Assembly: GCA_029862125.1 (NCBI GenBank)
Contig: JAOTXY010000001.1
Coordinates: 1-64,000, forward strand
Length of the DNA stretch: 64,000 nucleotides
Reading direction: 5' to 3'
Origin: Gammaproteobacteria bacterium
GTDB taxonomy: Bacteria > Pseudomonadota > Gammaproteobacteria > GCA-001735895
The notes below the pieces were generated by a model, which saw nothing but the letters and a program-made list of their open reading frames with translations, made no database searches and was not told where the DNA came from. Numbering within the stretch: the stretch's first letter is position 1; each line of letters starts with the position of its first letter. The translations under genes were made by a program, and so were the position numbers. This document shows, in pieces, positions 46,225 through 63,780 of the stretch.

Positions 46225-48069
46225 ATGCATCTGAATCAACGTTTTGGCTTGACCATGATTATCGCGACCCTGCTGGTCATGGTTGCGACTGTCTATCTCC
46301 TGTTCGACTTTCAGCGTAACAATCGCGAGGATATGGCACGCGCCCAGGGCCTTGAATTAGCACGCCTTTTGAGCGGCATGTCATGGAGTGAGCTGGTACC
46401 GCAAGCAGGCAGAAAGGGGCTACTCGCAGTGCTTAAGCAAGGACAAAGCAACCCCGACTTTGCTTATGGCGCGGTGGTTGACATCGATGGCAAGGTCGCA
46501 ACCGAGGTCACTCGTTCGGACGTCATCGTGCCTGTCGGTGATATTATCAACGAACCAACCGGCTGGTTAGGACAACGTGTTCTCTCCGCGAATGACGCCG
46601 CTAGCCAGGTTAAATTTATCGAAACACATGCCCCGGTATTTGACCAGGGTGTGCATATGGGTTTTGTACGGCTTGGATATTTCCGACCCGGTTTCAGTTT
46701 CAGCTACTACGAAATGCCATTTCTGGCGTCTGTGATGCTGCCGATATTCCTGCTGGTACCTTTCTTTTACTTCATGCTACGCCGCGAAATCAAACCGCTT
46801 AAAGACATCAGCGAGCGATTTGAAAATATAGCCGAGCAGGGAGGTTTAACCCAGATCGAAATGCCTCCAAGCCAGGCATTGAACGATTTCATGGAGCAGG
46901 TCAGCGACTACATCGATGCTACCCAAACCCGGATCGAAGTGTTAAACCAGGAACACGAAGATCTGACGATGTCGAGCAAGTTGCTGACCTATAAAAATAA
47001 TCGCGTCGACGCCATCCTGCAGAATTTTCCCGACGCCATCATGGTGATCGACGAAGCCGGCGAAGTCAGTTACGCCAACGCTAAAGTTGAACGTTTGCTC
47101 GGGATTGATGCCGAAGCAATGCTCGGCAAGAAAACCCGCGAGTGGTGCAAAGATCCGCAGATTATCCCGCTACTGACTTTCGGTGACGTCAAATCGAACC
47201 TGCAGGCCAACCAGGATACGGTTCAGGTCAGGCTGGATGATAACAGTGAAAAATCTCTACAGTTCAGTGTCTACCCGTTGTTCACGCCAAACAATGAGAG
47301 CAAAATCCTGGGCCGCCTGGTAGTTATCTGCGACGTATCCGAGAGCCACGAGATGCGCCAGCGCCAGAACGAATTTATCTCGCATATCTCGCATGAACTA
47401 AAAACACCGCTCAGCGTGCTGTCGATGTACAGCGAATCGCTTTTGACCGAGGGCTCCGACGATGAAGCCTACCGCATCGAGGCGGTGAACGTGATTCATG
47501 ACGAGGTCGAACGGCTGTCGACCCTGATCAATAACCTGCTCGCAATCAACCAATACGAACTCGGTGGGGTCATCGCGCAGCGTAATCATGTGCGCTTACA
47601 CGAGTTTCTCGAGGATGCGTTTGAAAATATCACCAAGGCCAGGGGTATCAAAGATCTTGAGTTCGACCTCGATATTCCGCGTGAAATGAGCATGGTTTAT
47701 ATCGATAAGGATTTATTCCGAATAGCAGTAAATAACCTGCTGACCAATGCGATCAAGTACAGCAAACCTGGTGGCAAAGTCAGCATGAGCGCCAGTGAAA
47801 ACGAAGACAGCATCGAAATCGTGGTCAGCGATGAGGGTTATGGCATCGCCGAGACCGATATAAAGCAGATATTTAATAAATTTTTCCGCTCAACGGACAA
47901 AAACATCAGAAATCAGACCGGGCATGGCCTGGGCCTGTCGTTGGCGCGCCAGATCGTGTTAATGCACCACGGCGACCTGACCTGTAGCAGTGAACTCGGC
48001 AAGGGTAGTCGCTTTGTTATTCAACTGGAGAAGGTTTCGACACAGATTATGGATGCCGCCGCGTCATGA
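46225..48069 (+). CDS. PAS-containing membrane sensor histidine kinase
   Basis: A 614-residue kinase. TM1 lies at about residues 8-27 (MIIATLLVMVATVYLLF), an extracytoplasmic domain at 28-165, TM2 at about 166-188, and a HAMP-like linker at 189-235. A PAS domain follows (about 265-375, with DAIMVIDEAGEVSYANAK), then HisKA with the phosphorylated His390 in FISHISHELKTPL, and HATPase_c with NNLLTNAIKYS, DEGYGI and GHGLGLSLA. Its stop overlaps the response regulator by 4 bp. It is the first gene of the secretion/pilus run, so its input likely gates that system. Confidence 0.92.
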   Translation: MHLNQRFGLTMIIATLLVMVATVYLLFDFQRNNREDMARAQGLELARLLSGMSWSELVPQAGRKGLLAVLKQGQSNPDFAYGAVVDIDGKVATEVTRSDVIVPVGDIINEPTGWLGQRVLSANDAASQVKFIETHAPVFDQGVHMGFVRLGYFRPGFSFSYYEMPFLASVMLPIFLLVPFFYFMLRREIKPLKDISERFENIAEQGGLTQIEMPPSQALNDFMEQVSDYIDATQTRIEVLNQEHEDLTMSSKLLTYKNNRVDAILQNFPDAIMVIDEAGEVSYANAKVERLLGIDAEAMLGKKTREWCKDPQIIPLLTFGDVKSNLQANQDTVQVRLDDNSEKSLQFSVYPLFTPNNESKILGRLVVICDVSESHEMRQRQNEFISHISHELKTPLSVLSMYSESLLTEGSDDEAYRIEAVNVIHDEVERLSTLINNLLAINQYELGGVIAQRNHVRLHEFLEDAFENITKARGIKDLEFDLDIPREMSMVYIDKDLFRIAVNNLLTNAIKYSKPGGKVSMSASENEDSIEIVVSDEGYGIAETDIKQIFNKFFRSTDKNIRNQTGHGLGLSLARQIVLMHHGDLTCSSELGKGSRFVIQLEKVSTQIMDAAAS

Positions 48070-48455
48070 ATAAAATTTTAATCGCAGACGATGAACCGCA
48101 TGTACTGCGGGTACTGAAACTCTCGCTCGAGAAAGAGGGCTACGCGGTGGAAACCTGTGCCAACGGCAAGGAGGCCCTCACCCAGCTCGAACAGCAACAT
48201 CCCGATATCCTGATTACCGATATCCAGATGCCGCAGATGACCGGCGAGGAATTGTGTCGGCATATCAAGCAGCATATGCCCGAGCGCAAATTCCTGATTT
48301 TCGTACTCACCTCGCGCACCGAAATCGAACACCGCGAGTGGTCACGCGATATCAACAATTTACTGTTTCTCGAAAAACCGGTCAGCATCCGCAACCTGTT
48401 GGAAAAGATCGAGGGTTACTTTTCTGGAGCATCCGATAGTTGGAGGGCATCCTGA
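48066..48455 (+). CDS. Stand-alone CheY-like response regulator
   Basis: A 129-residue receiver domain with the acidic pair in IADDEPHVL, phosphoacceptor Asp52 in ITDIQMPQMTG, the switch Thr/Ser region VLTSRTE and the invariant Lys in FLEKPVS. There is no output domain, so phosphorylated regulator must act by protein contact, perhaps with the GGDEF-EAL protein or the STAS-ATPase encoded directly downstream. It shares its last base with the start of the next gene. Confidence 0.92.
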   Translation: MNKILIADDEPHVLRVLKLSLEKEGYAVETCANGKEALTQLEQQHPDILITDIQMPQMTGEELCRHIKQHMPERKFLIFVLTSRTEIEHREWSRDINNLLFLEKPVSIRNLLEKIEGYFSGASDSWRAS

Positions 48456-50653
48456 TGGCTACCGTGCCTGACAGCAGCGTTCATTTTGATCATTATCTTA
48501 CCCTGCTGAAGGGTTTTTGCCCGGATGTGCGGGCGATGGTCGTGTTCGATCACGAGCAAAGTTGCATCTGGCAGGGCGACGCCAGTCCCCTTGATCTGGA
48601 TCAGGTGGTACCCCAGCTGAAGTCATTCCGTGCAGGTGACAGCGATGACGTACGGGTAACACTTGGCGACAACGCTAGCCTCGAGCTGATCAACCTGAGA
48701 AACACACACGGGGAAATAGCGCTAACCCTGGGTATCGAGGCCGTGGACAAGACTGTACAAGCGGTGGCGGCGAACCAAAATATTGGCTTGCTGAATGAAT
48801 TTTTACTGGCTGACTACGAACAAAGCCTGGCGCTCGCGACCAAGGAAGACGAGCTCAACCATATGACCGACGAGCTCACCCGACGTTACGAAGAACTCAA
48901 CCTGATCTACAAGGCCGAGGACCAGGCGCTCAATATTTACCATGGACGCGAACTGTTGCGACAGCTGGTGATGAATACATCGCGTTTCCTTAACGTCGAT
49001 ATTATTTTTCTCTACATCGCGGGCAAAAATATCGCGATGCATAAATACAAAAACGATAATCCGTTGTTCGAATCGGACAAACTGTTTGACTATCTGCGTG
49101 ACTCGGTTTACCCGTTACTCGAAACCGATCCGCAGTCCCTCGTCATCAACCATATCGAAGACGCCAGAATGCATAATTTCACCCAGAATACGCCGTACAA
49201 ACATGTCGTCAGCCCGGTCGTCAACGCCGAAAATCAGGTTATCGGACTGCTCGCGATTGCGAGCCAGAATTTCAGTGTTGATTTCTCCAATAGCGATCGA
49301 AACCTGCTCGACGTGATGTCGAAAAAGGCCTCCAAGATCGCCCAGTCCCATTTCGATCCCTTAACTGGGCTTGAAAATAGCAACAGTTTTGAACTCATCA
49401 TCAAGGATTTGTTAAAACAATCTTCGGGTACAGATGTTAACCACGCCATCGCTAATGTTGACATTGATCGTATGGCGGTGGTGAACGATATCAGCGGACG
49501 CGATGTGGGTGATCTGTTGATTAAGAAGGTTGGGCAGAAACTCGCCAGCATGGTGCGCTCGCGCGATGTGGTGGCGCGCATCGGTAGCGACAAGTTCGGA
49601 GTGTTACTGGAAAATTGCGATTTGCCGACAGCACAAATCGTCATGAAAAAAATTTCCCATGCGGTCTCTGCCATAGATTTTAAATGGGAGGGCGAGTCAC
49701 ACGAAATCAGCGTCAGTATCGGTATCGCCCCGATCACCGCCGAAACGCAGTCGGTGACCAGCCTCATGAATGCTGCCGAAACTGCGCGTAACGTGAGCAA
49801 GGAACGTGGTCGTAACAGCATCCATGTGCTCGATCTGGAAGACAGCAATTTACTGGAGCGCAAGGACCAGATTCGCTGGGTTGGGCTAATTCAGGCAGCG
49901 TTGCGCGAAGACCAGTTCATGCTGTATGCGCAATTGATCAAGCCTTTAAAGACAAAAACGGCTAAACCACATTACGAACTACTGTTACGTATGCGGGGTA
50001 ATGATGGCAGTGTAATTCCACCTGGGAAGTTTCTGCCCGCCGCAGAAAACTTTTACCTGATGTCGAGCATTGATTACTGGGTGATCGGCCAGGCTTTCAG
50101 CGAGCTAGCCAAGCATAACCGGGAATCCGGACAGGGATGTGAGGTCTCGATCAACCTGTCGGGACAGTCGCTGAGCGACCCGGTCGGTTTTGCCGCTTAT
50201 ATTGGTAATAAACTCGAGCAACATCAGTTGGACCCTAGTGATATCTGTTTCGAAATTACCGAGTCATCTGCGATCGAAAATATTGATGATGCCCGCTTTT
50301 TTATCGATCAGGTAGGAGCTTACGGTTGTCAGTTTTCACTCGACGATTTTGGCACCGGCCTCAGTTCCTTTGCCTACCTCAAAAACCTTAAAGTCAGTTA
50401 CCTGAAGATCGATGGCAGCTTCGTTACCGACATCGTCACAGACCCGGTCAGCGAGAGCATGGTCTCGGCGATCAACCAGGTGGGGCATGCAATGCAGTTG
50501 CAAACGATTGCCGAATTCGTCGAAAACGATGCGATTGCGCAAAAGCTTGTCGACATCGGTGTCGATTATGGACAGGGTTATGGTTTCGGCAAGCCCGTAC
50601 CATTCGATGAAATCCTATCCTCGCTGCCGAGCTCGAAATCGAAGTCGGCGTAG
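48455..50653 (+). CDS. GAF-GGDEF-EAL protein (degenerate GGDEF, intact-looking EAL)
   Basis: A 732-residue cytosolic signalling protein. After an N-terminal domain of unknown type (1-115) and a coiled stretch (about 125-160), a GAF-like domain spans about 165-305. The GGDEF domain (about 305-465) has GSDKF at the signature and no RxxD inhibitory site, so cyclase activity is doubtful. The EAL domain (about 485-725) has ELLLR for EALLR, and DDFGTGLSSF and DYGQGYGFGKP are well kept, so c-di-GMP hydrolysis or binding is plausible. GGAGGG precedes ATG 48455; a longer TTG start is unnecessary. Confidence 0.88.
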   Translation: MATVPDSSVHFDHYLTLLKGFCPDVRAMVVFDHEQSCIWQGDASPLDLDQVVPQLKSFRAGDSDDVRVTLGDNASLELINLRNTHGEIALTLGIEAVDKTVQAVAANQNIGLLNEFLLADYEQSLALATKEDELNHMTDELTRRYEELNLIYKAEDQALNIYHGRELLRQLVMNTSRFLNVDIIFLYIAGKNIAMHKYKNDNPLFESDKLFDYLRDSVYPLLETDPQSLVINHIEDARMHNFTQNTPYKHVVSPVVNAENQVIGLLAIASQNFSVDFSNSDRNLLDVMSKKASKIAQSHFDPLTGLENSNSFELIIKDLLKQSSGTDVNHAIANVDIDRMAVVNDISGRDVGDLLIKKVGQKLASMVRSRDVVARIGSDKFGVLLENCDLPTAQIVMKKISHAVSAIDFKWEGESHEISVSIGIAPITAETQSVTSLMNAAETARNVSKERGRNSIHVLDLEDSNLLERKDQIRWVGLIQAALREDQFMLYAQLIKPLKTKTAKPHYELLLRMRGNDGSVIPPGKFLPAAENFYLMSSIDYWVIGQAFSELAKHNRESGQGCEVSINLSGQSLSDPVGFAAYIGNKLEQHQLDPSDICFEITESSAIENIDDARFFIDQVGAYGCQFSLDDFGTGLSSFAYLKNLKVSYLKIDGSFVTDIVTDPVSESMVSAINQVGHAMQLQTIAEFVENDAIAQKLVDIGVDYGQGYGFGKPVPFDEILSSLPSSKSKSA

Positions 50654-50659
50654 ATAATC

Positions 50660-52741
50660 GTGTCCGACGCGAATATAGTCAGTATTGAAGAAGGCTTAAG
50701 CCCGGGAACGGTCACTAAAAACCGGGTCGGGGCAATGACCCATCTGTTCCCGCGTGGAAATCTGACCGACCCCGAATTGCTGGACGCGTTAAGTGCGGCG
50801 GTCGACGAAAGCATTGCCAGCCAGGAAGTACAGTTGATCATCGACATGGTGAGCGTATCCCTGATCGACAGCAAAGCCCTCGAATCCCTGTTTGACCTGC
50901 GCCAGGACCTTGCCAGGGCCGGTGGCTGGTTGAAAGTCACCAATGCCAAGCCGCTGATCCGTGACATATTCCTGGTAACCGGCCTGGACCAGGTCATCGA
51001 TATCGTCAACAGTTTTAATATCGATAAACCCGAGGTGGTCAGGCCTGACACGACCAGCAGCGAGGGTATTCGCATAGGTGATCTGCTGGTTAACAAGGGA
51101 CTGCTATCCAAGGAAAAAGTCGAAGAGGCGATCGTACTGCAGAAAAAGAGCGGTAAGCGTCTGGGGCAGATTATCGTCAGCAAGGGCTGGGTCAGCGAAG
51201 ACGTTTTCCTGACCGCACTCGGTGAACAGTTGGGGATTCCCCACATTGTTATGCGCCAGGGACTGGTTGATCACGACGTTTTTACCCAGCTAGAGTTAGA
51301 GGTGTCACAAAGACTCAAGGTGGTACCGATGTTCCTGGTGCACGGTGAGCTTACATTGGCGACGTCGGATCCACAGGCCATTGCCAGTTTCAGCGAAATC
51401 GAAGAGCGGCTGGACTGCAAGATCCGCCCGGTACTGGTTCGCAAAAGCGACATCGTCAAGAGCCTGAACGAAGCTGGTTCCGGCAGTATCTACGATGCCG
51501 AGAATCTCGAGGATCTCGACGACGATTTCGAGTTTATCGACAACACGCCTCCGGATGATTATACCGGAATCGATGAAATGGCAGCGGGTAGCCCGGTCAT
51601 CAACATGGTGAATTCGATTATTCAACGCGCGGTGCACGACAAGGTCAGCGATATCCACATCGAGCCCTCGCAAAAAAAGTGTCGCGTGCGGTTCCGCATC
51701 GACGGTTTGCTGTACGAAGTCATGACGCCGCGTATCGAGCTGCACCCGGCCCTGGTGTCTCGCCTCAAGGTTATGGCCAACCTCGATATCGCCGAACGCC
51801 GCATGCCACAGGATGGTCGCATCCAGGTGCATACCCAGGGACGCTCGGTAGACCTGCGCTTCAGCTCCCTGCCCGGGTTACACGGGGAAAAAGTGGTGCT
51901 GCGCGTACTCGACAAGAACCAGTCAATTCTCGATATCGAAAAACTCGGTATGCAGGAACCCAATGTCATTACCTACAAGCGCCTGCTGGATCGCAGTTAC
52001 GGCTTGATCCTCGTCACCGGGCCCACCGGTAGTGGTAAAACCACGAGCCTGTACTCGGCGATTAACTATCTCAACAGCCTCGAAAAAAACATCGTCACCA
52101 TCGAGGACCCGGTCGAATACCAGCTCGATATCGTCAACCAGAACCCGGTGCGCGAAAATATCGGCCTGAGCTTTGCCAAGATGCTCAAGCACGTACTGCG
52201 CCAGGACCCCGACGTGGTCATGGTCGGTGAAATACGTGAACGTGAAACCGCGGAAATCGCGGTGCAGGCGGCCCTGACCGGGCACCTGGTGTTGTCCACG
52301 CTGCACACCAACGACAGCATCGGCGCGGTCACGCGCATGATCGACATGGGGGTCGAACCTTACCTGCTGTCCTCGGCCCTGATAGGTGTGGTCGCGCAGC
52401 GCCTGGTGCGCTCGATCTGCCCCAATTGCAAGACCGAGTTTCTGGCGAGCCCCGAGATGATCGAGAAATACGGCTGGCAGGACCAGGGCAAGGTGCGCCT
52501 GTCCAAGGGCCGCGGCTGTGCCGAATGCTACGATGCCGGCTATCGCGGGCGTATGGGTATCCACGAAATTATCGAAACCAATCCCGAGCTGCAGCGCCTG
52601 ATCATCGCCAACGCGTCGCGCGATGAACTCACCGATTATCTGAACCAGCACGAGATCAAGCTGTTGTTCGATGATGGTATCGATCGCGTGCGCGAAGGCC
52701 AGACCACGATTGAAGAAATCTGGCGCGCGGTCAACAGCTAG
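50660..52741 (+). CDS. GspE/PilB-type secretion ATPase with N-terminal STAS domain
   Basis: A 693-residue fusion. Residues about 20-120 form a STAS domain (LIIDMVSVSLIDSKAL with Ser71 at the phosphorylatable position, then GGWLKVTNAKPLIRDIFLVTGLD). Residues about 130-280 are a T2SSE/MshE N-terminal domain (IGDLLVNKGLLS, LGEQLGIP). The rest is the AAA-like motor with Walker A GPTGSGKTT (454-462), VMVGEIRERETAEIA, and a four-Cys zinc site in CPNC and CAEC. It begins with GTG 6 bp after the EAL gene. The motor powers pseudopilus assembly through the GspF protein 15 bp downstream. Confidence 0.93.
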   Translation: MSDANIVSIEEGLSPGTVTKNRVGAMTHLFPRGNLTDPELLDALSAAVDESIASQEVQLIIDMVSVSLIDSKALESLFDLRQDLARAGGWLKVTNAKPLIRDIFLVTGLDQVIDIVNSFNIDKPEVVRPDTTSSEGIRIGDLLVNKGLLSKEKVEEAIVLQKKSGKRLGQIIVSKGWVSEDVFLTALGEQLGIPHIVMRQGLVDHDVFTQLELEVSQRLKVVPMFLVHGELTLATSDPQAIASFSEIEERLDCKIRPVLVRKSDIVKSLNEAGSGSIYDAENLEDLDDDFEFIDNTPPDDYTGIDEMAAGSPVINMVNSIIQRAVHDKVSDIHIEPSQKKCRVRFRIDGLLYEVMTPRIELHPALVSRLKVMANLDIAERRMPQDGRIQVHTQGRSVDLRFSSLPGLHGEKVVLRVLDKNQSILDIEKLGMQEPNVITYKRLLDRSYGLILVTGPTGSGKTTSLYSAINYLNSLEKNIVTIEDPVEYQLDIVNQNPVRENIGLSFAKMLKHVLRQDPDVVMVGEIRERETAEIAVQAALTGHLVLSTLHTNDSIGAVTRMIDMGVEPYLLSSALIGVVAQRLVRSICPNCKTEFLASPEMIEKYGWQDQGKVRLSKGRGCAECYDAGYRGRMGIHEIIETNPELQRLIIANASRDELTDYLNQHEIKLLFDDGIDRVREGQTTIEEIWRAVNS

Positions 52742-52756: not shown

Positions 52757-53878
52757 ATGGCGATTAACACCAGACAGCACGCGCTCGTGGCACAGGCATC
52801 AACCTCGTTGCCCGTGTCAAAACCAAAATTTCAGCTCAAGCAGGCCGTCGGTGACAAGGAACGCCGCTTCTTCACCGAGCAAATGTCTTTACTGCTGGAG
52901 ACCGGCACCCCGCTACAGCAGAGCCTGCAGGCAATGAAAAAGCAGATTGAAAACCCGGCGATGCTCGAGCTGCTCGATCAACTCATCGACGATATCGCCC
53001 AGGGCGTACAGTTTTCGACCGCGCTGGCCAAGCATCCCACGGTTTTCTCCACCACCTATACCAACCTGGTTGCGGCGAGCGAGGAAGGTGGTTTCATGCA
53101 CGAAGTACTGCAACAGCTGCTGGCCCTGGACGAGAAACGCGAAGAGTTGCGCAAGACCATGGTTTCGGCGCTGTCATACCCGGTATTCCTGCTGGTGTTT
53201 GCGTTGGCCGTAGTGGTGTTCGTGCTGGTGGTGGTGTTTCCGAAGTTTGCCGACCTGTTTTCGCAAATCCAGGACCAGTTACCCGTGACCACCAAATTCC
53301 TGATGGCCACCAGCAATGTTTTGAAAGATCACTGGATCGAGTTGACCGTTGGGCTGGTGGTGTCGATCGGCGGTTTCAAGTTCTGGTCCGCGACCGAAAA
53401 CGGCATCCGCAAGCTCGACTGGGCCAAATTGAATTTCCCGCTGCTGCGGCACATTTTCGTCCAACTTTACCTGGTCAATACGATGCGGGTGTTGAGCATG
53501 TCGCTCGGCAACGGTGTGGGCATGATGGATTCGCTGCATGCCTGCAAGTTTGTCGTTAAAAACAGCCTGTTCCAGGAATTTATCGGGCAGGTCGAAAACC
53601 AGGTCGAAACCGGCAACGGTATCGCCGCGGGCTTTCAGAATACCAGTTTCATTCCGCCGATCGTCGAACAGATGATCAGTACCGGCGAAGAAACCGGAAA
53701 TTTACCTAAAGTTATGAGCCGCCTGGCCGATTATTTTGAAGGCGAGCTTTCCAGCAAGCTGCAAACCCTGTCGCGACTCGCAGAACCGGTCATGTTGCTG
53801 ATTATGGGGGGTGTCGTGGGATTGATCGTAAGTTCGCTGATATTGCCGATTTTCAAACTAACCCGGGTCGTTGGGTGA
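52757..53878 (+). CDS. GspF/PilC-type inner-membrane platform protein
   Basis: A 373-residue T2SS_F protein with two homologous cytoplasmic domains (about 35-155 and 240-345) and three membrane segments (YPVFLLVFALAVVVFVLVVVFP, a second at about 195-215 and MLLIMGGVVGLIVSSLILPIF at the end). Family residues include FFTEQMSLLLETGTPL, AASEEGGFM, GMMDSLHAC and STGEETGNLP. It is the partner of the STAS-ATPase and anchors the growing pseudopilus. A 119-bp gap before the next gene is the only sizeable break in the operon core. Confidence 0.93.
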   Translation: MAINTRQHALVAQASTSLPVSKPKFQLKQAVGDKERRFFTEQMSLLLETGTPLQQSLQAMKKQIENPAMLELLDQLIDDIAQGVQFSTALAKHPTVFSTTYTNLVAASEEGGFMHEVLQQLLALDEKREELRKTMVSALSYPVFLLVFALAVVVFVLVVVFPKFADLFSQIQDQLPVTTKFLMATSNVLKDHWIELTVGLVVSIGGFKFWSATENGIRKLDWAKLNFPLLRHIFVQLYLVNTMRVLSMSLGNGVGMMDSLHACKFVVKNSLFQEFIGQVENQVETGNGIAAGFQNTSFIPPIVEQMISTGEETGNLPKVMSRLADYFEGELSSKLQTLSRLAEPVMLLIMGGVVGLIVSSLILPIFKLTRVVG

Positions 53879-54581: not shown

Positions 54582-55166
54582 GTGTGTCTCGGGCGTTACC
54601 CCCAGGTTATAAAACGTAACACGCAGGCTGGCTTCAGCCTGCTGGAAATCTCTATCGTAGTACTCATCCTGGGGATCATGGCCATCGTCGTGATCCCCGA
54701 TTCCGCTCCCGGCAACCAGCAAAAACTCGATCTCGCCGCAAGCCAGATTGCGCAGGCGCTGCGCTTTGCGCACCGCGAGGCTTTGCGCACCGGCGAACAT
54801 CATGGCGTCACCATCAGCCAGGTCACGCAAACCATCACGGTCAAAAAATGGGACATGACGACCGACCCGGTCAGCACCGAGCTGATACCTTACCACCCGG
54901 TCAACAAGCAGAGTTTCGTCTTCGATGCCGATACCATGAGTCTTGCCCCGGGCGTGTCGATCATCAACAGCAGTGATATTTTCAACTACATCAGCATCGG
55001 GCGTCGGCGTAGCCTGATCTTCGACCCGCAAGGCGTGCCGGTGTGGGTGCTCGGTTCCGACGACAGCGTTTACCGTCTGCTCGACGGGATCGTACAACTC
55101 AGCGATGGCCAGAACCGGCGCGACATCGCGGTCGCACCGCTGACTGGCAGGGTGATGGTTAAATGA
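54582..55166 (+). CDS. Minor pseudopilin GspH/FimT-like
   Basis: A 194-residue protein with prepilin signal TQAG-FSLLEISIVVLIL (Glu at +5) and a beta-rich C-terminal part with AQALRFAHREALRTGE, typical of GspH. No ATG is available near the start; GTG 54582 gives an 18-residue leader. It is 11 bp after gspG and overlaps the next gene by 4 bp. It probably joins the pseudopilus below the tip complex. Confidence 0.85.
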   Translation: MCLGRYPQVIKRNTQAGFSLLEISIVVLILGIMAIVVIPDSAPGNQQKLDLAASQIAQALRFAHREALRTGEHHGVTISQVTQTITVKKWDMTTDPVSTELIPYHPVNKQSFVFDADTMSLAPGVSIINSSDIFNYISIGRRRSLIFDPQGVPVWVLGSDDSVYRLLDGIVQLSDGQNRRDIAVAPLTGRVMVK

Positions 55167-55585
55167 AACAACGGCAAGCGGGTTTCTCCTACCTGGAACT
55201 GCTGATCGCGACCCTGCTGATCGTGATCATGCTGGTGCCGGCGCTCGACGCTATGCAAAGCGGTATCCAGGGCAGTGGCATCCATACGCAACTGGCGCAG
55301 AACCAGTATCGAATGATCTCGAAGATGGAAGAGACCCTGGCGCTGCCGTTTGCGCAGTTACTGGAACAGGCTGACCTGGTCGCCGACCCGACCGTGTTGA
55401 TACCCGCACCCTTTTCTGATCCCGCAGGTACCGAATCCCGCCGCCTTGTGTTTCTGGCGCGTTACGATGGCGACAACGCCGATGGTAACGACAATCCGTT
55501 TAATGGTACCGATGAGGGTTTGCTGTGGGTACGGATTACGATCGAAAACAGCCCGCGTGCGCTGGAGACCGTGATCGTTGAATAG
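55163..55585 (+). CDS. Minor pseudopilin GspI-like
   Basis: A 140-residue protein with signal RQAG-FSYLELLIATLL and Glu at +5. The remaining sequence is short and acidic, with an unusual DGDNADGNDNPFNG stretch (about residues 100-113) before the last strand, comparable to the Asp-rich insert in the next gene. GspI proteins form the tip trimer with GspJ and GspK. Order H-I-J-K and 4- and 8-bp overlaps identify it. There is little else to recognise. Confidence 0.8.
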   Translation: MKQRQAGFSYLELLIATLLIVIMLVPALDAMQSGIQGSGIHTQLAQNQYRMISKMEETLALPFAQLLEQADLVADPTVLIPAPFSDPAGTESRRLVFLARYDGDNADGNDNPFNGTDEGLLWVRITIENSPRALETVIVE

Positions 55586-56597
55586 CGTCCCACCAACCCG
55601 GTCGTCGCCGCGACTTCTCGCTGGTAAGCACGGTTTCACCTACGTCGAACTGATGATAACGCTCGCGATCGCGTCGCTGATCATTCTCGGCCTCACCGGT
55701 GTGGTCGGACAGGCACTGCAGTCGCAGGATACGGTCTCGGCGACCAATCAGTTGACGCGTGATGCGCGCTTTGCGATGCAACGCATGCTGCGCACGATTA
55801 CCCATTCGCGTCGTTTACTGCTTCCATTCAGGGATAAACCGGCATCCAACTGGCCGGAAAATATACGTGAGCAAACCGTGCCGCCCTCCGCACCGATCGG
55901 AGATAGCACCTTCGCCACCGCGGTGCTCGCGGTGACGCTGCCGGCTTATGTTGACCTGGACAACGACGGCTTCCCGGATGCCGACGACGACAGGGATGGC
56001 CTGATCGACGAAGATTTACCGAATGATAACAACCACGATTTCTTTCCCGGCATCATGCTCATCGACGACGACGGCGATGGTCAGATCGATGAGAACCCTT
56101 CCTACTGGTGGGACGATGACGAAACCAACGCGGTTTACAACGAGGATCCGCTCAACGGTATTGACGACGACGATGATAATAACGTCGATGAAGACACGGC
56201 CAGCGACCAGAATGGTGACGGTTGCCCGGGAGTCTGTGGTGTCGACGATGATGGCGACGGATCGATCGATGAAGGCAACGACGATGACGATGACGAGGAT
56301 GGAAATACTTTCGACGATCCTTATGACCCAGTTGTCTTTTACCTGAACAGTGGGTCCCTGGTCGAACGCATGCCAGCGCCCTGGGACACCGACGGTATCA
56401 GCGTGCCCGATGGGCCGGTCGATGGGCGAGATTTTATCGAATCGGTGATTGCCGACAACGTCACCCGGTTTCGCGTCGAGCGCCTCGATAACGGTAGTGT
56501 GTTCGAAGTCATTGATCTCACGCTCGAACTCACCAGTCCGCTCACCGGCGAAACCGTGAGCCTGCAAGCCCAGGTCCGGGTCGGGGGTGCGTTGTGA
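55578..56597 (+). CDS. Minor pseudopilin GspJ-like with Asp-rich calcium-loop insert
   Basis: A 339-residue GspJ-like protein starting at TTG 55578 (no ATG available), with signal GKHG-FTYVELMITLA and Glu at +5. Residues about 126-250 form an insert of repeated acidic loops: DLDNDGFPD, DDDGDGQIDE, DDDDDNNVDE, DQNGDGCPG and DDDGDGSIDE. These DxDxDG loops resemble EF-hand or thrombospondin type 3 calcium sites, with two Cys that may close one loop. The following GspJ fold resumes with VFYLNSGSLVER and VTRFRVERLDNG. Usual GspJ length is about 200-240, so the insert accounts for the excess. Confidence 0.88.
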   Translation: MNSVPPTRSSPRLLAGKHGFTYVELMITLAIASLIILGLTGVVGQALQSQDTVSATNQLTRDARFAMQRMLRTITHSRRLLLPFRDKPASNWPENIREQTVPPSAPIGDSTFATAVLAVTLPAYVDLDNDGFPDADDDRDGLIDEDLPNDNNHDFFPGIMLIDDDGDGQIDENPSYWWDDDETNAVYNEDPLNGIDDDDDNNVDEDTASDQNGDGCPGVCGVDDDGDGSIDEGNDDDDDEDGNTFDDPYDPVVFYLNSGSLVERMPAPWDTDGISVPDGPVDGRDFIESVIADNVTRFRVERLDNGSVFEVIDLTLELTSPLTGETVSLQAQVRVGGAL

Positions 56598-59500
56598 TCC
56601 GCTCGGTAAAACAAACCGGCTATATCCTGCTGCCGGTGATCGTCGTGATCACGGTGGTGGCGGCGATCGCGTTGCTGATGAATACCGAAAGCGCGCTTGA
56701 AAGCAATACCGCCGGCAGCGAACTCGACGCGCAGCAGGCACAATACGTTGCCGAGGCGGGATTGAATCATGCCCTGTGGCTGGCGCAACAGCAGGGCTGT
56801 GGCCCGTATAGCAATCTGACCGACGAGCCGCTGGATAACGATAAATACACCTCCAACCTGACCACCGACCTCGGCAGCACCACCAGCTATTCGAGTACCG
56901 TGGACCAAGATACGTGGATCACAAGCAACCAACCGGACGACAATAAAGGCAGCGATGGCGTCCTGCATGTCGGTTTCAATAGCGGTGATAGCGAACGCCC
57001 GTTACTGCGCTTCGATCTGTCTTCAATTCCGGTGAAGGCCGCGATTCTGTCAGCCACGGCCTGGTTTTATGTCGACCAGTCCCATCCCGAAGGGGCGGTC
57101 GACATCCATCGCATCACTGCCGACTGGATCGAGACTGACGCTACCTGGAACACGATGAACGCCAACATGGATAGCGCCGTGATCACCAGCATTCCGCCTC
57201 AGCCAACCAGCGATGTATGGGTTGCGGTCAATCTCACCAGCCAGGTGCAGGCCTGGATTAACGACCAGCCCAACTATGGCATTACGCTGAACTCGACCAG
57301 CGAGGGCGTCGATGGCAGATACGATAGCCGCGAGTCTGCCAACGCGCCCTACCTCGAAGTTATCGTCGGTACACCGCCGACGTCACCGGCGCTGCTGAAA
57401 GCGGTCGGTATGCTCGCCAACGGCGTCACGCGAGACATCACTCGCAACGATGTGGTGTTGTATCAACATCCACCGGGAATGCTCCAGCTGCAGCCTGGTG
57501 CGGCGGATGGGGAAGACGCCGAAATCTGGGATCAGGCACCCAACAATAACTACGGCGCCGCTGATGAAACCTGGGTTTCATCAGCGGTCAGTGATACCAC
57601 GCGTTCACTGTTGCGCTTCAACCTGGGTGCGATACCGGCCGGTGCGAGAATTATGCGTGCAGACCTGTCCCTGGAGCGGGAGAGCGGTTCCGGGGCGGAC
57701 CAGCCGGTGTCGGCACATCGCATCGTGAACCCGTGGAGCGAAGCCTCGGTGACCTGGAACCAACGGGAATCCGGCACCAACTGGGACACCGCTGGTGCCG
57801 ATTTCGATAACATGGCGATTACGACGACTCCGGTCGGTCCGGTAAACCAGCGCTATGCCTGGAACATTACGTCGCTGGTGCAAGGCTGGGTTGACGGCAG
57901 TTACCCGAACTACGGCGTTGCACTGGTCGCCGCGATCGCGGGAATGCCGGGTGAGCGATTCTATACCAGCGACGAAACAGATGAGACGCGGCGTCCGCGC
58001 CTGATGATTAACTATACCTGCGCCTGCGACGAAATTTGCGCGAGGCCACAGGGCGGCGGCAACCTGCTGATGGTGGTGATCAATCCAACCACGCTGGTGG
58101 CCGAGGATCAAAAGGCGAAAGACCTGTTCGAATCCTGGGGCTACACGGTTTCCGTCATCAGCGAAAGCGCCAACCAGTCCACCTATGATTCCCTAATCGC
58201 GCTTAACGATGTTGTGTTTATCTCGGAAACCGTGAATTCGAACTCGGTCGGTACCAAGTTGGTCAACGCCCCGATCGGCGTCGTCAGCCAGGATGGCGAT
58301 TACAATCCCGATCTCGGACTGGCCCCGGGTGCGTCGCTCAAAATCGGCGGCGATATCGATATCGTCAGTACCGATCACTACATTACACAGCCGTTCGCCG
58401 TCGGAACCCACCGGATCTATACCGCCGACATGGAACAGGCCATCGTCAGCGGCAGCCTGACCGCCGATCAGCAGACGCTCGCCGAGAACGCCGGCGATGG
58501 TTCGCTCGTGGTGCTCGACAGGGGCGACGCAATGGAGGGTGGTGGCACTGCCGCAGGGCGCCGCGTGATCCTACCGCTTGGCACCCGTTACCGCTTCGAC
58601 TGGGATTACCTCAACGCCAACGGCCGGCTGCTGGTGCAGCGTGCGCTCGCCTGGGGTATGTCCAAGGACAAGTTCAGCAAGGGTAATGTCTTGCTAGTGG
58701 TACCGGACCCGGCGAGCCTGAACTCGCGTGACAGCTCCAAGCAGGCACTGATCGAATCCTGGGGTTACACGGTCAACCTGATCGACGACAGCGATAGCCA
58801 GGCCAACATCGATGCGGCGGCGGCGGCGAACGATGTCATTTACGTTTCCGGGTCGATCTCCGGCGGCGCGTTGGCCGACAAGCTGACCGGTTCGCCGACG
58901 CCGATCGTCAACGAGTTCAACGGCAAGCTCGACAACTTCGGTTTTTCCAGCTCGACTGGCAATACGGTATCGGCCGATACATTTACGTCAACCAATGCGG
59001 CGCATTATATTTCTGAAACCTTCGCCGGCGCCGCGACGACTGTATTCTCGTCCAGCCTGACGATGCCGGTACCGGGCGGCACGCTGGCGCCGGATTTGGA
59101 GACCGTTGGCGAAACTGCTGGTGCGGTAGCGGCGCTGGTGACTCTCGATACCGGCGCGCAGCGCTGGGACGGAAATCCGGCACCGGCGCGGCGGGTACAC
59201 CTGCCGTTCGGCAGCGCTGAGACCAGCCAGCTGACCGCCGACGGTGAAAACCTGATGCGGCGCGCGCTCGAATGGGCCGGCGGCGCCGGATGCGTTGACA
59301 TGCAACCGCTGCTGCTGGTCGTCGGTGATGCGGCGACGCTATCCAGCAAGGACGATGGCATGAAGACCCTGATACGGTCCTGGTGTTACAGCGTTACTGT
59401 CATCGATGACGGCGACAGCCAGGCTAATTTCGATGCCGCAGCCGCGGCGGTGGACGTGGTCTACGTGTCGGGAACTACATCGGGTCCGTCACTACAGGAC

Positions 59501-61537
59501 AAATTGACCGGTTCACCGACACCGATCGTGAACGAGATCAACGGTAAGCTGGATAATTTTGGTTTTTCCAGTTCGACTGCCTCGAGCGTGAGCGCAAGTG
59601 CTTTTAGTGCAACCGATGCGTCGCATTATATTTCCGAACCCTTCACCGGTAATCCGGTCACTGTATTTACGACCGACCTGGCGATGCCGGTACCCGGCGG
59701 TACGCTGGCGCCGGACCTGCAGATCGTCGGCGAAACCACCGGTGCGATACCGGCGCTGGTGACTCTCGATACCGGCGCGCAGCGCTGGGACGGAAATCCG
59801 GCACCTGCGCGGCGGGTACACCTGCCGTTCACCAATGCGGAACCGAGCCAGTTGACCGCAGATGGGGAAATCCTAATGCGGCGATCAATCGAGTGGGCCG
59901 GGTCCCCCTTACCCGGCCCGATCGCGCACTGGAAACTCGACGATGCGGTTGGGATGACAGCAATCGACTCGGTCGGCGGTAACGACGCGACGCTGAACGG
60001 TAATCCCGCCTGGACCACGGGGGTTGCGGACGGTGCACTCGAGTTTGACGGCAGTGGTGACTATGCAACGACCGATAATCCCTTTACCCCGCCGCCAGTG
60101 GGTACCGTTTCGTTCTGGATGAAAGTGCCCGGGTCACCGGCATCGCACGGTCGCATACTCGGGCTCGACGACACCTGGGAAATCCGCCATGTCACGACCG
60201 GCACCCCCGACGGTATTGCTTACGGGCTGGTGTTCGACCTCGGTGTTACCGGCGTCAATACCGAATTTGTCACCACCGTCACTGTCGATACACCGGACCA
60301 ATGGTATTTCGTGGCCGCGACCTACGATACCAACACCGATGCCTACCAGGTCTACCTGGACGGCGTGCTGCACAAGAGTGGAACCTATCCTTCCGCATTA
60401 GCGGTGCCGGCTGCCAACCCGCTATCGCTGGGTACCAGAACCGGTTCCAGCAATTACTTTACCGGTACTCTGGATGACGTGCAGATTTACGATCGCATCC
60501 TGAGCGCGGGCGAGATTGCCGAATTCTATTCCGCCGGTGCACCCGCTGTAGCCGCTTACACCGAACTTTACGAACCCTGGACCGCGGCCACGCCGGACAA
60601 CTGGGAAACGGTTTCGCTGGTAACTTTCGGCGTGCCGGCCAACGCGGTGGTCGAAGTTGCCGTAATCAACGAGGCGACCAGCGCACAACGCTGGGGCGGA
60701 GTGCGTGCGGTCGGATCGACGCTGGATCGGCGTTTGCAATTGCAGGAAGCCGAGGCCGGCGGCATCGATGTCGTCACCATGCACGTGCAGGCCGATGTCA
60801 GCAGCCAGATTGAACATTATTCCGATAACACCAGCCAGATCAGTTTCATCCTGCTCGGTTACTGGACCGGCGCGGTTTATGTCGAATTGATGGATCCTTT
60901 CACTGCCAATGCCAGCAATAGTTGGGTCGAGGAAAGCCTCGCCGATGATGGCCTCGGACCTAACCAGGTGGCCGAAATCGCGATCGTCAATACAAATACC
61001 GGAGCCGAACGACTGGCCGGGGTTCGCCCCTCGGGCGCCACTTATCAACGGCGATTTATGCTGCACGAAGCCGAATCGGGTGGCGTCGATGCTTTGTCGA
61101 TGATGGTCACCACCGATGCGTCATCGATCGCCGAGGTCTTCGCTTCGAGCAGCGCGGATGTCGATTTCTACGTGCTCGGCTATTGGGACACGTCGCCGGG
61201 AACCTACACCGCGACCGGGGGCGCCCACGGTCAGGTATCGTCGCCGATGAGCTGGGAGACGATCGATCTGAGCAGCTACGGTGTTCCGGTGGATTCGGTC
61301 GCACAGTTCGTACTCGCCAACGAAAACCAGGGCACCGAAAACAGCATGCGCGTGCGTGAAGTCGGTTCGACGATCAATAACAGGGCCCTGCTGCTGCACG
61401 AAGCCGAGGCCGGCGGTTCCGATCTCGGCAGCCTGCACGCCAACGTCGATGCCAGCCAGCAGGTGCAGTGGGCCGCGGCACAGGGCCCAGCGGGTGGTTT
61501 CTTTTACCCGGTCGGCTGGTGGGTGTTGTCGCCTTAA
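56594..61537 (+). CDS. Giant GspK/PilX-like minor pseudopilin with adhesin-type mosaic
   Basis: A 1647-residue protein starting at GTG 56594, overlapping gspJ by 4 bp. The N-terminus KQTG-YILLPVIVVITVV is a prepilin signal lacking Glu+5, as in GspK, followed by a short GspK/PilX-like AQYVAEAGLNHALW. Then come two DNRLRE-like domains (about 99-265 and 298-475), three roughly 207-residue ThuA/amidotransferase-like repeats (about 485, 695 and 902 onward; LLVVxDxxxL, GYTVxxIDD, VVYVSG), a LamG/concanavalin domain (about 1107-1315; IAHWKLDD, GALEFDGSGDY) and three ~107-residue repeats (from 1321, 1428, 1536). It is probably the surface tip. GspK is normally about 300 residues. Confidence 0.88.
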   Translation: MIRSVKQTGYILLPVIVVITVVAAIALLMNTESALESNTAGSELDAQQAQYVAEAGLNHALWLAQQQGCGPYSNLTDEPLDNDKYTSNLTTDLGSTTSYSSTVDQDTWITSNQPDDNKGSDGVLHVGFNSGDSERPLLRFDLSSIPVKAAILSATAWFYVDQSHPEGAVDIHRITADWIETDATWNTMNANMDSAVITSIPPQPTSDVWVAVNLTSQVQAWINDQPNYGITLNSTSEGVDGRYDSRESANAPYLEVIVGTPPTSPALLKAVGMLANGVTRDITRNDVVLYQHPPGMLQLQPGAADGEDAEIWDQAPNNNYGAADETWVSSAVSDTTRSLLRFNLGAIPAGARIMRADLSLERESGSGADQPVSAHRIVNPWSEASVTWNQRESGTNWDTAGADFDNMAITTTPVGPVNQRYAWNITSLVQGWVDGSYPNYGVALVAAIAGMPGERFYTSDETDETRRPRLMINYTCACDEICARPQGGGNLLMVVINPTTLVAEDQKAKDLFESWGYTVSVISESANQSTYDSLIALNDVVFISETVNSNSVGTKLVNAPIGVVSQDGDYNPDLGLAPGASLKIGGDIDIVSTDHYITQPFAVGTHRIYTADMEQAIVSGSLTADQQTLAENAGDGSLVVLDRGDAMEGGGTAAGRRVILPLGTRYRFDWDYLNANGRLLVQRALAWGMSKDKFSKGNVLLVVPDPASLNSRDSSKQALIESWGYTVNLIDDSDSQANIDAAAAANDVIYVSGSISGGALADKLTGSPTPIVNEFNGKLDNFGFSSSTGNTVSADTFTSTNAAHYISETFAGAATTVFSSSLTMPVPGGTLAPDLETVGETAGAVAALVTLDTGAQRWDGNPAPARRVHLPFGSAETSQLTADGENLMRRALEWAGGAGCVDMQPLLLVVGDAATLSSKDDGMKTLIRSWCYSVTVIDDGDSQANFDAAAAAVDVVYVSGTTSGPSLQDKLTGSPTPIVNEINGKLDNFGFSSSTASSVSASAFSATDASHYISEPFTGNPVTVFTTDLAMPVPGGTLAPDLQIVGETTGAIPALVTLDTGAQRWDGNPAPARRVHLPFTNAEPSQLTADGEILMRRSIEWAGSPLPGPIAHWKLDDAVGMTAIDSVGGNDATLNGNPAWTTGVADGALEFDGSGDYATTDNPFTPPPVGTVSFWMKVPGSPASHGRILGLDDTWEIRHVTTGTPDGIAYGLVFDLGVTGVNTEFVTTVTVDTPDQWYFVAATYDTNTDAYQVYLDGVLHKSGTYPSALAVPAANPLSLGTRTGSSNYFTGTLDDVQIYDRILSAGEIAEFYSAGAPAVAAYTELYEPWTAATPDNWETVSLVTFGVPANAVVEVAVINEATSAQRWGGVRAVGSTLDRRLQLQEAEAGGIDVVTMHVQADVSSQIEHYSDNTSQISFILLGYWTGAVYVELMDPFTANASNSWVEESLADDGLGPNQVAEIAIVNTNTGAERLAGVRPSGATYQRRFMLHEAESGGVDALSMMVTTDASSIAEVFASSSADVDFYVLGYWDTSPGTYTATGGAHGQVSSPMSWETIDLSSYGVPVDSVAQFVLANENQGTENSMRVREVGSTINNRALLLHEAEAGGSDLGSLHANVDASQQVQWAAAQGPAGGFFYPVGWWVLSP
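59131..59209 (+). repeat. 79-bp direct repeat within the giant gspK gene, copy 1
   Basis: This stretch is repeated at 59752-59830 with a single mismatch in 79 bp, 621 bp (207 codons) apart. It encodes the ALVTLDTGAQRWDGNP region of ThuA-like repeats 2 and 3. Flanking parts of these repeats are less similar in DNA, suggesting a recent local conversion. Confidence 0.85.
59752..59830 (+). repeat. 79-bp direct repeat within the giant gspK gene, copy 2
   Basis: Second copy of the element at 59131-59209; it reads cacctgcg where copy 1 has caccggcg. Confidence 0.85.
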
Positions 61538-61605
61538 AGGGCGATTGAATTGTCAATTTGCCGGGTTATGAACTATATAAATAGCGAATTTGGTTAAAAT
61601 TAAAA

Positions 61606-62832
61606 ATGAAAATAAATATTCCCAAACAAATACGTTCGGTATGGTCGAGTACGCACTATGATTCGCCCGAGCTGACGCGCTTTGCCCGACGCAAAGCGGT
61701 TGCGGAGGCGCGCAAGGGGCTGGCGGCGATGAGTATATTGACCATGGGGATTTTACTGATCGAAGGCACGCTCTATGTCAAGTTTGCGCTCGACCCGATG
61801 TACCTCTACACCTGCGCGATCCTGGTGTTGTTGTCGCTCAATATGGTGTTTGCCTCGCGCACCGTCGGCGATCCCCAGGCATTGCATTTACTCGGTGTCA
61901 CGCTGCTGGCGGTCTCCGGTAGCGCTTTTATATTACTGGCGCACTACCAGCATGTTTTTCACCCGATGTTGTTTGCCAGTGTCGCGATGCTGTTCATTGT
62001 GATACCGATGATGTCCTGGGGCCTCGGCGAAGCGCTCGCGGTGACGCTGCTGATCTATACCATGTTTACCCTGTCGACGCTGGAGGCCAATTATAATTTT
62101 GCCGATCAAAGCCTGTGGACCTTGCAATTCATTATGCTCGGCGCGAGCACGGTCAGCTTGTCGCTGGTGGTGCGCAACGTCAGGCTACGCAAGCACGACG
62201 TCAAAGCCCAACACGACCTGGTGGTCGCGCATGCGCAGATCACGGATTTGTCAAATCGAGATCCGTTAACGAGTGCCTGGAATCGACGCTATTTTGACCT
62301 CGAATTCGAGCAATACCTGAAGCAGTGTCGTGAAAATCAAAATCAATTCCATTTCATGCTGCTCGATGTCGACGATTTCAAGCTGATCAACGATGATTGC
62401 GGGCACGAAAGCGGCGACCAGGTGCTCAAGAATATCGGTCAGGCGTTTAGTAGTGTAATCGACGACCATGGCAGCCTGGTACGCATGGGGGGTGATGAAT
62501 TCGCAGTGATTTTCGCCGACCTCGATCCCAAGGTTATTGCGATTCGGGGATTGAAAATATTCTGTGATTTAAATGCTGCGAGTAAATATGACCTGATAAA
62601 GCAGGCAAGCCTCAGCATCGGAGTCGCTAGTGTGCCGCCTGATATCGAAGTCAGCTATCGCCAGCTTTACAAACAGGCAGACCTCGCGCTTTACCGGGCA
62701 AAAGCGCTAAAAGATAATAATCCTGCACCACCGAATATTGTCATCAGTATTTTGCACGACCCCGATGATGTTCTCAGCAGTACTCGAAGTTTGTGGAAAA
62801 TGCCGGAAAGCGTTAGCAAGGCCGCCAACTAG
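61606..62832 (+). CDS. Membrane diguanylate cyclase (GGDEF)
   Basis: A 408-residue protein with about six membrane segments (residues 40-200), a coiled linker (VRLRKHDVKAQHDLVVAHAQ) and a complete GGDEF domain (about 225-385: DLSNRDPLTSAWNRRYFD, LLDVDDFKLINDDCGHESGD, RMGGDEFA). No RxxD inhibitory site precedes the signature. It should make c-di-GMP, opposing the EAL protein at the other end of the operon. It starts 68 bp after the giant gspK gene in the same direction. Confidence 0.92.
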   Translation: MKINIPKQIRSVWSSTHYDSPELTRFARRKAVAEARKGLAAMSILTMGILLIEGTLYVKFALDPMYLYTCAILVLLSLNMVFASRTVGDPQALHLLGVTLLAVSGSAFILLAHYQHVFHPMLFASVAMLFIVIPMMSWGLGEALAVTLLIYTMFTLSTLEANYNFADQSLWTLQFIMLGASTVSLSLVVRNVRLRKHDVKAQHDLVVAHAQITDLSNRDPLTSAWNRRYFDLEFEQYLKQCRENQNQFHFMLLDVDDFKLINDDCGHESGDQVLKNIGQAFSSVIDDHGSLVRMGGDEFAVIFADLDPKVIAIRGLKIFCDLNAASKYDLIKQASLSIGVASVPPDIEVSYRQLYKQADLALYRAKALKDNNPAPPNIVISILHDPDDVLSSTRSLWKMPESVSKAAN

Positions 62833-62916
62833 GCGCGTCTGTTTTATCACCTGATTGTTAATGAATCGGCGCTTGCTGCCGATCTATTGACTAATTACCG
62901 ATTCGGATGCCTCCGT

Positions 62917-63780
62917 ATGAGCAATCAATGGGAAAAGGTCACCATCCAGGCCAACCTGGTGACGTTGCCGGATATCTACTGGCAACTCAAGGAAATTCTC
63001 GATAGCCACGACTACTCGATGCAGGACGTGGCGCAATTAATCGTCTACGACCCGGGATTGACGGCGCGCATGTTGCGCATCGTCAATAGTGCTTATTTCG
63101 GCTTCGCCGCTAAGATTGATACTGTCACTCATGCGGTTTCGATTCTCGGAGTGCAACAAATCCGTGACCTGGTGTTAGCGACAGCGATTGCCGATGCGCT
63201 CGGCGACTACGAATGCGAACATCTTGACGTCAAGCAATTCTGGCTGCGCAGTGTTTATCGCGCGATTGCCGCGCGTAACCTGGCGGGCGTCTGCAGCCTG
63301 ATGGACGGTGAGCGCATGTTTGTGGCGGGCCTGTTGAGCGGCGTCGGTCACCTGATCATGTACCAGTCGATACCGGTACTGGCGCAGCAGGCACAGCGCG
63401 AGGCCGAGGCCAACGGAAAACCGCTGCATCGGGTCGAGCGCGAAGTGATTGGTTTCGATCATGCCAGGGTGGCGAGCGGGTTGATGAAGAACTGGCAGCT
63501 GCCTGACAGCCTGGTTGCGGTGATCGAGCATCACCTGGAACCGGACCCGGCGGCAGATTACCTGCTCGATACCGCGATTGTGCATATCGCCGCTTTGATT
63601 GGTGAGGCGTTTGCGCAAAATCGGCCACTGGACGAGGTTTTGGTGAATGTAGATGGCCATGCCTGGGATGCCACCGGGCTCGATATCGGCCGCTGCGAAG
63701 CCGTCGATGTCGAGGTTTCCGAGCAGTTAAACAGCGTCGTCAACATGTTATTTCCGAAACTGCAACGTGCAGCGGGATAA
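62917..63780 (+). CDS. HDOD-domain protein
   Basis: A 287-residue HDOD protein (domain about 15-215) with LPDIYWQLKEIL, IVYDPGLTARMLRIVNSAYFG, VSILGVQQIRDLVL and the FVAGLLSGVGHLIMY segment. HDOD domains are degenerate HD relatives found in signalling proteins, generally without proven catalysis. The longer frame from TTG 62887 is not needed; ATG 62917 fits the family start. It is last in the co-directional run, 84 bp after the diguanylate cyclase, and probably integrates with the same c-di-GMP circuit. Confidence 0.88.
   Translation: MSNQWEKVTIQANLVTLPDIYWQLKEILDSHDYSMQDVAQLIVYDPGLTARMLRIVNSAYFGFAAKIDTVTHAVSILGVQQIRDLVLATAIADALGDYECEHLDVKQFWLRSVYRAIAARNLAGVCSLMDGERMFVAGLLSGVGHLIMYQSIPVLAQQAQREAEANGKPLHRVEREVIGFDHARVASGLMKNWQLPDSLVAVIEHHLEPDPAADYLLDTAIVHIAALIGEAFAQNRPLDEVLVNVDGHAWDATGLDIGRCEAVDVEVSEQLNSVVNMLFPKLQRAAG

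What the first reader, a model, noticed from the sequence alone, without database searches (positions are those of the whole stretch)
46225..63780. Signal-gated pseudopilus: two-component, c-di-GMP and STAS modules in one run with a type II-like assembly set and giant tip protein
Twelve co-directional genes, most with overlaps or gaps under 20 bp, combine a sensor kinase, receiver, GAF-GGDEF-EAL protein, STAS-fused GspE, GspF, pseudopilins G-K, a diguanylate cyclase and an HDOD protein. GspC, D, L, M, N and the prepilin peptidase are missing. The tip protein is five times normal GspK size. Established: pseudopilins G-K with E and F form an extendable fibre in type II secretion and MSHA-like pili. 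Inference: this is a dedicated, environmentally gated fibre that displays one large adhesin or glycan-binding tip instead of secreting free enzymes.
Basis: partly seen in the sequence, partly recalled or inferred. Interest (0 to 1): 0.85.

Follow-up and report, generated by a model that had tools for sequence, protein, structure and literature searches.

The report
Complete signal-gated pilus with lectin tip

Summary
The co-directional run at 46225-63780 is real, but the headline 'missing secretin and L/M genes' is a window-edge artefact. The contig continues, and 219 bp after the last reported gene come PilM, PilN, PilO, a PilP-like protein and a secretin. The full unit is 17 genes: HK, REC, GGDEF-EAL, STAS-MshEN-ATPase, platform F, pilins G-K, diguanylate cyclase, HDOD, M-N-O-P-Q. 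The gene order recurs widely: 16 of 369 sampled genomes of the class (12 families) have the STAS-ATPase, including symbionts of marine worms and clams. Signalling genes travel with the machine: 13 of 14 relatives with the STAS-ATPase carry the same GGDEF-EAL protein, against 0 of 43 without. The ATPase has both published c-di-GMP motifs, so MshE-like c-di-GMP gating is the best reading. 'GspK' is a modular tip pilin (CBM96, GATase-like, LamG, jelly-roll domains); giant size is common, not universal (311 to about 1,680 aa). By the tests run it is not T2SS, MSHA or T4aP. I rate it a new variant of type IV filament: c-di-GMP gating and lectin-tipped pilins are known; the STAS-motor fusion and self-contained circuit are not described in papers I could search.

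The parts
46225..48069 (+). Sensor histidine kinase: N-terminal membrane-bound sensor region, PAS, HisKA, HATPase_c; phospho-accepting His kept in homologues
   Evidence: sensor part is locus-specific in 369 class genomes
48066..48455 (+). Stand-alone receiver (REC); phospho-accepting Asp (ITDIQMP) kept in homologues
48455..50653 (+). GGDEF-EAL protein; GGDEF degenerate here (GSDKF) though canonical in some homologues; EAL catalytic motifs (ExLxR, DDFGTG, K, QG) intact, so a predicted c-di-GMP phosphodiesterase
   Evidence: co-occurrence
50660..52741 (+). Extension ATPase: STAS - MshEN - T2SSE
   Evidence: clade of its own with 100/99 support
51071..51229 (+). c-di-GMP-binding 53-residue motif pair (24+5+24) of the MshEN domain, aa 138-190
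   Evidence: NF053729 62.4 bits over cut-off 38; published motif PMC5013675; conserved in relatives
52757..53878 (+). Inner-membrane platform protein (GspF/PilC family)
   Evidence: PF00482
53989..54570 (+). Pilin G, probable major pilin (GFTLVE)
54582..55166 (+). Minor pilin H
55163..55585 (+). Minor pilin I
   Evidence: weak pilin-type hits at the N terminus; position and GFSYLE signature
55578..56597 (+). Minor pilin J, 339 aa, with an acidic insert (about 55950-56330) holding four DxDxDGxxD calcium-binding-type motifs
   Evidence: motif present in 33 of 33 homologues
56594..61537 (+). Giant tip pilin K, 1647 aa, no Glu at +5
56894..57985 (+). Two CBM96/DNRLRE-type beta-sandwich domains of K
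   Evidence: PF24517 112.9 bits, 2 stretches; at least one found in every K protein compared
58058..59899 (+). Three repeats of a GATase1/ThuA-like fold in K
   Evidence: model pLDDT 95; anthranilate synthase GATase subunit Z 15.8; repeats
60047..60520 (+). Laminin_G_3 / concanavalin A-like lectin domain of K
   Evidence: PF13385 85.2 bits
60554..61522 (+). Three C-terminal jelly-roll repeats of K, seen so far only in this genus
   Evidence: model pLDDT 95; Bdellovibrio Bd2133 fibre tip Z 8.4
61606..62832 (+). Membrane diguanylate cyclase, intact GGDEF site, no RxxD inhibition site in front of it
62917..63780 (+). HDOD protein (ORF open from 62887)
   Evidence: PF08668 198.1 bits
64000..64000 (+). 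First base of the off-window continuation on the same contig: PilM 64000-65133, PilN 65126-65782, PilO 65782-66354, PilP-like 66344-66709, secretin 66706-68208 (contig numbering equals window numbering)

Best explanation
The locus encodes a complete, self-regulated type IV filament of its own subfamily. F, M-N-O-P and the secretin Q form an envelope-spanning assembly machine. The STAS-MshEN ATPase drives polymerisation of pilin G behind a tip complex of H, I, J and K, with K at the distal end displaying tandem glycan-binding-type domains outside the cell. The ATPase is active only (or mainly) with c-di-GMP bound to its MshEN domain. A membrane sensor kinase and receiver, through the EAL phosphodiesterase and the diguanylate cyclase encoded beside it, set local c-di-GMP and so switch fibre extension on or off. 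Function: controlled attachment to polysaccharide-rich surfaces. Pilins are cleaved by the genome's single shared PilD, and retraction, if any, is by the shared PilT-type ATPases. Shown here: gene content, order, conservation, co-inheritance, intact motifs, predicted folds. Inferred: c-di-GMP binding, extension control, tip position, glycan binding, what the kinase senses, and what the STAS domain does.
For: Complete machine past the window edge. Conserved 17-gene order in the genus and, with small changes, across 12 families. STAS-ATPases form one clade (100/99); secretins group together with weaker support (89/98). GGDEF-EAL protein present in 13 of 14 relatives with the STAS-ATPase and 0 of 43 without; within the patchy genus 10 of 10 against 0 of 21. 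HK sensor hits in the class fall in this locus, or on contigs that break off inside the same HK-REC-GGDEF order, except one weak hit. MshEN motif pair intact; in V. cholerae MshE c-di-GMP binding promotes extension (PMC7096442). EAL motifs intact in the homologues examined. K lacks Glu5, the mark of the capping tip pilin (PMC10191384). K carries CBM96, LamG and jelly-roll domains. K is far less conserved than the motor (56% against 96% identity between this genome and relative G020), as expected of a surface-exposed tip.
Against: No expression, binding or imaging data. One complete relative (G045) keeps the machine but lacks HK, REC and GGDEF-EAL, and G071 lacks GGDEF-EAL, so the local circuit is not obligatory. 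DGC and HDOD genes are accessory. Gaps of 110, 84 and 219 bp allow internal promoters, so one transcript is not shown. A 1647-aa tip passing a secretin is demanding. Most genomes compared are metagenome assemblies. The co-occurrence P value ignores kinship.
Confidence: 0.68

Rival explanations
1. It is a type II-like secretion system: short periplasmic pseudopilus, G-K as piston, K as substrate-handling tip, exporting enzymes whose genes lie elsewhere.
For: Five-pilin G-H-I-J-K order as in E. coli gspG-K; ATPase scores highest against the GspE model (575 bits) and F against GspF.
Against: Inner-membrane set is PilM/N/O type, with no GspC, GspL or GspK family hit; ATPase and secretin miss the GspE and GspD cut-offs while E. 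coli controls pass; K carries large lectin-type domains; no substrate genes conserved in the locus.
Confidence: 0.13
2. It is simply a divergent MSHA pilus whose K replaces MshP/MshQ; the signalling genes are incidental neighbours.
For: c-di-GMP-binding MshE-like motor, large putative adhesin in the cluster as MshQ (PMC7096442), PilMNOP-type genes as in MSHA (PMC6668835).
Against: No mshM or mshN; the same genome holds a separate canonical MSHA set whose secretin passes the MshL model (276 against 250 bits) while this one scores 142; ATPase clades separate; signalling genes co-inherited.
Confidence: 0.12
3. The fibre's main job is capture of polysaccharide or another ligand by retraction for uptake, not attachment.
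For: The CBM96 founding member binds alginate chains (PMC9971899); PilT-type ATPases in the genome.
Against: No transporter or polysaccharide-degrading gene conserved next to the locus; no dedicated PilT in it.
Confidence: 0.07

Closest known systems
Vibrio cholerae MSHA pilus with MshE (c-di-GMP-gated extension ATPase)
   Same: MshEN c-di-GMP motif pair on the extension ATPase; PilM/N/O/P-like set and secretin; several minor pilins; a large putative adhesin (MshQ) in the cluster
   Different: No MshM or MshN; STAS domain in front of MshEN; adhesin-type domains are fused to the tip pilin itself; kinase, receiver, phosphodiesterase and cyclase in the same run; the genome has a true MSHA set besides
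Type IVa pilus (PilB, PilC, PilMNOPQ, PilHIJK, PilC/PilY1)
   Same: Core parts and the HIJK-type tip complex with a capping subunit lacking Glu5
   Different: All genes in one cluster, no PilT, PilD or PilY1 in it; ATPase and secretin miss the PilB and PilQ models that the genome's own T4aP passes
Modular tip pilins PilB and PilC of Streptococcus sanguinis T4P
   Same: Adhesive, glycan-binding-type domains grafted onto a minor pilin (PMC9934059, PMC8179133)
   Different: Here a Gram-negative machine, one very large pilin with about nine domains, and a calcium-motif pilin J beside it
Type II secretion system gspC-O
   Same: Gene order E-F-G-H-I-J-K
   Different: No GspC, L, M or O in the cluster; PilM/N/O/P instead; giant K
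Bdellovibrio MAT fibre tips (Bd2133)
   Same: C-terminal beta-sandwich fold of K's last repeats resembles the Bd2133 tip (Z 8.4, 14% identity)
   Different: No evidence of a trimeric fibre; resemblance of fold only, near the level common for jelly-rolls

Membership tests
Type II secretion system | GspE equivalog ATPase | tested here: not met
   TIGR02533 575 bits, cut-off 630; E. coli GspE control 657
Type II secretion system | GspC and GspL/GspM inner-membrane set | tested here: not met
   The genes hit PilM_2, PilN, PilO in Pfam; one sub-cut-off XpsM-type GspM hit for the O protein (21.9 against 60); no GspC or GspL hit
Type II secretion system | GspD secretin | tested here: not met
   TIGR02517 186 bits, cut-off 351; E. 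coli GspD control 649
MSHA (MSH) pilus | mshM present (mandatory with mshA, E, G, L in the published model, PMC6668835) | tested here: not met
   No mshM-like gene in the loci mapped; mandatory list
MSHA (MSH) pilus | MshL secretin | tested here: not met
   TIGR02519 142 bits, cut-off 250; own canonical MSHA set scores 276
MSHA (MSH) pilus | c-di-GMP-binding MshEN on the extension ATPase | tested here: met
   NF053729 62.4 bits over 38; full 24+5+24 motif
Type IVa pilus | PilB equivalog and PilQ secretin | tested here: not met
   571 against 676 and 211 against 284 bits; own T4aP passes both with 850 and 527
Type IVa pilus | PilM, PilN, PilO inner-membrane set | tested here: met
   PF11104, PF05137, PF04350 over cut-offs
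Type IV filament superfamily | ATPase, platform, class III signal pilins, secretin and a prepilin peptidase in the genome | tested here: met
Type IV filament superfamily | A filament is actually assembled | not testable with these tools
   needs microscopy
MshEN c-di-GMP receptors | Measured c-di-GMP binding | not testable with these tools
   motif only
Tip-capping pilin (GspK/PilK type) | Class III signal with hydrophobic helix and no Glu at +5 | tested here: met
   P/S/T/A in 25 of 25 readable homologues
CBM96 | Family profile match | tested here: met
   PF24517 112.9 bits over 26; the lysine/arginine alginate-binding groove of the founding member was not checked

The most novel reading that the evidence does not exclude
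A separate, unnamed subfamily of type IV filaments in which the extension motor integrates two inputs, c-di-GMP through MshEN and a partner-switching or phosphorylation signal through a fused STAS domain fed by the kinase and receiver of the same locus, so that sensing, second-messenger supply, motor and glycan-binding tip form one co-inherited module.
Probability: 0.35. Interest if true: 0.75.

Novelty: new variant of a known kind. Interest (0 to 1): 0.55.

Why it matters
Control of pilus motors by c-di-GMP is known, but where the c-di-GMP comes from and how one motor is told apart from another in the same cell is an open question. Here the enzymes, the sensor and the c-di-GMP-binding motor are inherited as one block, in a genome that also holds a T4aP and an MSHA set, which makes local c-di-GMP signalling directly testable. 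The locus is also found in symbionts of marine worms and clams, where a glycan-binding fibre under signal control would be a candidate host or sediment attachment organelle (inference).

Tried and rejected
Secretin-less machine: rejected, the genes are just past the window edge. Giant K as assembly error: rejected, large K recurs in independent genomes including a 1.4 Mb scaffold. Signalling genes as chance neighbours: rejected for HK, REC and GGDEF-EAL; DGC and HDOD are accessory. Filing under T2SS, MSHA or T4aP: each failed at least one tested feature with working controls. Catalytic role for the GATase-like repeats of K: no catalytic cysteine in the repeat consensus, so taken as structural or binding. 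Promoter and terminator scan of the downstream part: no more sites than in shuffled sequence, uninformative. Literature searches for STAS-fused pilus ATPases found nothing relevant in the held library; absence there is not proof of novelty. The ATPase tree could not place the clade relative to MshE, PilB and GspE with confidence because of long branches.

Full report
Observation. The twelve co-directional genes are present as described, and Pfam confirms their families. The window is bases 1-64000 of a 110,113-base contig. The HDOD gene ends at 63780, and 219 bp later the same run goes on with PilM, PilN, PilO, a PilP-like gene and a secretin, overlapping one another by 1 to 11 bp, to 68208. 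The claimed absence of secretin and L/M functions is therefore an artefact of the window edge. The genome has one prepilin peptidase match, next to pilB on another contig, and PilT-type ATPase matches elsewhere.

Conservation. I mapped the neighbourhood of the STAS-ATPase in relatives. In the same genus the order is HK, REC, GGDEF-EAL, STAS-ATPase, F, G, H, I, J, K, DGC, HDOD, M, N, O, P, Q without change wherever the contig is long enough, and other genera of the family differ only in DGC and HDOD. In a sample of 369 genomes of the class, 16 genomes in 12 families have the STAS-ATPase (four further hits in that table match MshEN only). Named carriers include the Olavius algarvensis Gamma 3 symbiont, Candidatus Thiodiazotropha, tubeworm symbionts and Woeseiaceae. 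Their loci keep the same plan: the secretin and M-N-O follow wherever the contig is long enough (N and O of G220 were too divergent to be recognised). DGC and HDOD come and go. In G176 and L109 minor pilins and K lie in front of the kinase. G045 lacks kinase, receiver and GGDEF-EAL, and G071 lacks GGDEF-EAL.

Co-inheritance. Among 57 relatives, the N-terminal part of the GGDEF-EAL protein is found in 13 of the 14 genomes with the STAS-ATPase and in none of the other 43. Within the genus, where the locus is patchy, it is 10 of 10 against 0 of 21 (Fisher P 6e-12 and 2e-8, both ignoring kinship). The kinase's sensor region, searched in the 369 class genomes, hits eight STAS-ATPase genomes at exactly this locus and two genomes whose contigs end inside the same HK-REC-GGDEF order, plus one weak hit.

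Motor. The ATPase has STAS (aa 46-118), a c-di-GMP motif pair (aa 138-190, NF053729 62.4 bits over a cut-off of 38) and a full T2SSE domain. The motif matches the published 24+5+24 pattern (PMC5013675), and its Arg, Gly and Gln positions are invariant in the alignment of nine. In V. cholerae MshE, c-di-GMP binding promotes extension (PMC7096442). The STAS-ATPases form one clade apart from the genome's own PilB, MshE-type and other ATPases and from E. coli GspE (100/99). STAS function is unknown; its serine at the usual phosphorylation position is kept in most members but not in G045.

Signalling enzymes. The EAL motifs are intact in nearly all homologues examined; the GGDEF of that protein is degenerate in this genus (GSDKF) but canonical in others. 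The separate diguanylate cyclase has an intact GGDEF and no RxxD site in front of it here. So the local set can plausibly make and break c-di-GMP (inference).

Tip. K lacks Glu at +5 in every homologue readable by the pattern, the mark of the capping subunit of tip complexes (PMC10191384). It holds two CBM96-type domains, three repeats with a GATase1/ThuA-like fold (model pLDDT 95, Z 15.8), a LamG domain and three C-terminal jelly-rolls (pLDDT 95; best match the Bdellovibrio Bd2133 fibre tip, Z 8.4, which is only just above the level common for such folds). LamG recurs in five of seven K proteins examined from other groups; the jelly-rolls were seen only in this genus. K lengths run from 311 to about 1,680 aa (the 1818-aa ORF of G002 starts too early). 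CBM96-type domains occur even in the shortest. J, next to K, has DxDxDGxxD motifs in all 33 homologues, a likely calcium-dependent part of the tip (inference).

Placement. With own-genome and E. coli controls passing their models, the ATPase and secretin of this locus pass none of the GspE/GspD, PilB/PilQ or MshL models. It lacks mshM, mandatory in the published MSH model, and GspC, mandatory in the final T2SS model (PMC6668835). That paper left 884 systems 'generic', so this one may be among them; I could not check.

Verdict. A complete type IV filament of an apparently unnamed subfamily, best read as a c-di-GMP-gated adhesive pilus with a modular lectin-type tip. Its working parts are known in kind; the STAS-motor fusion, the self-contained co-inherited circuit and the size of the tip pilin are the new aspects.

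Noticed in passing
window 55950-56330 (pilin J): Acidic insert with four DxDxDGxxD calcium-binding-type motifs; at least one motif in all 33 J homologues, mostly three to five.
   Followed up: partly
G000:C18:30000-58000 (L046, L047): The same genome holds a canonical MSHA set and, next to it, a second MSHA-like set with its own secretin (246.7 bits, just under the MshL cut-off of 250.2) and ATPase.
   Followed up: partly
G290: C102 and C34 (L074, L075): One genome carries two copies of the STAS-ATPase locus, each with its own signalling genes, pilins and K.
   Followed up: no
G157 (L072): about 16115-18900: Three HDOD genes in tandem between K and M in one relative.
   Followed up: no
window 44755-45807: A methionine-synthase-like (MetE-type) gene precedes the kinase in the genus members whose contig reaches it, but was not seen in other genera.
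   Followed up: no
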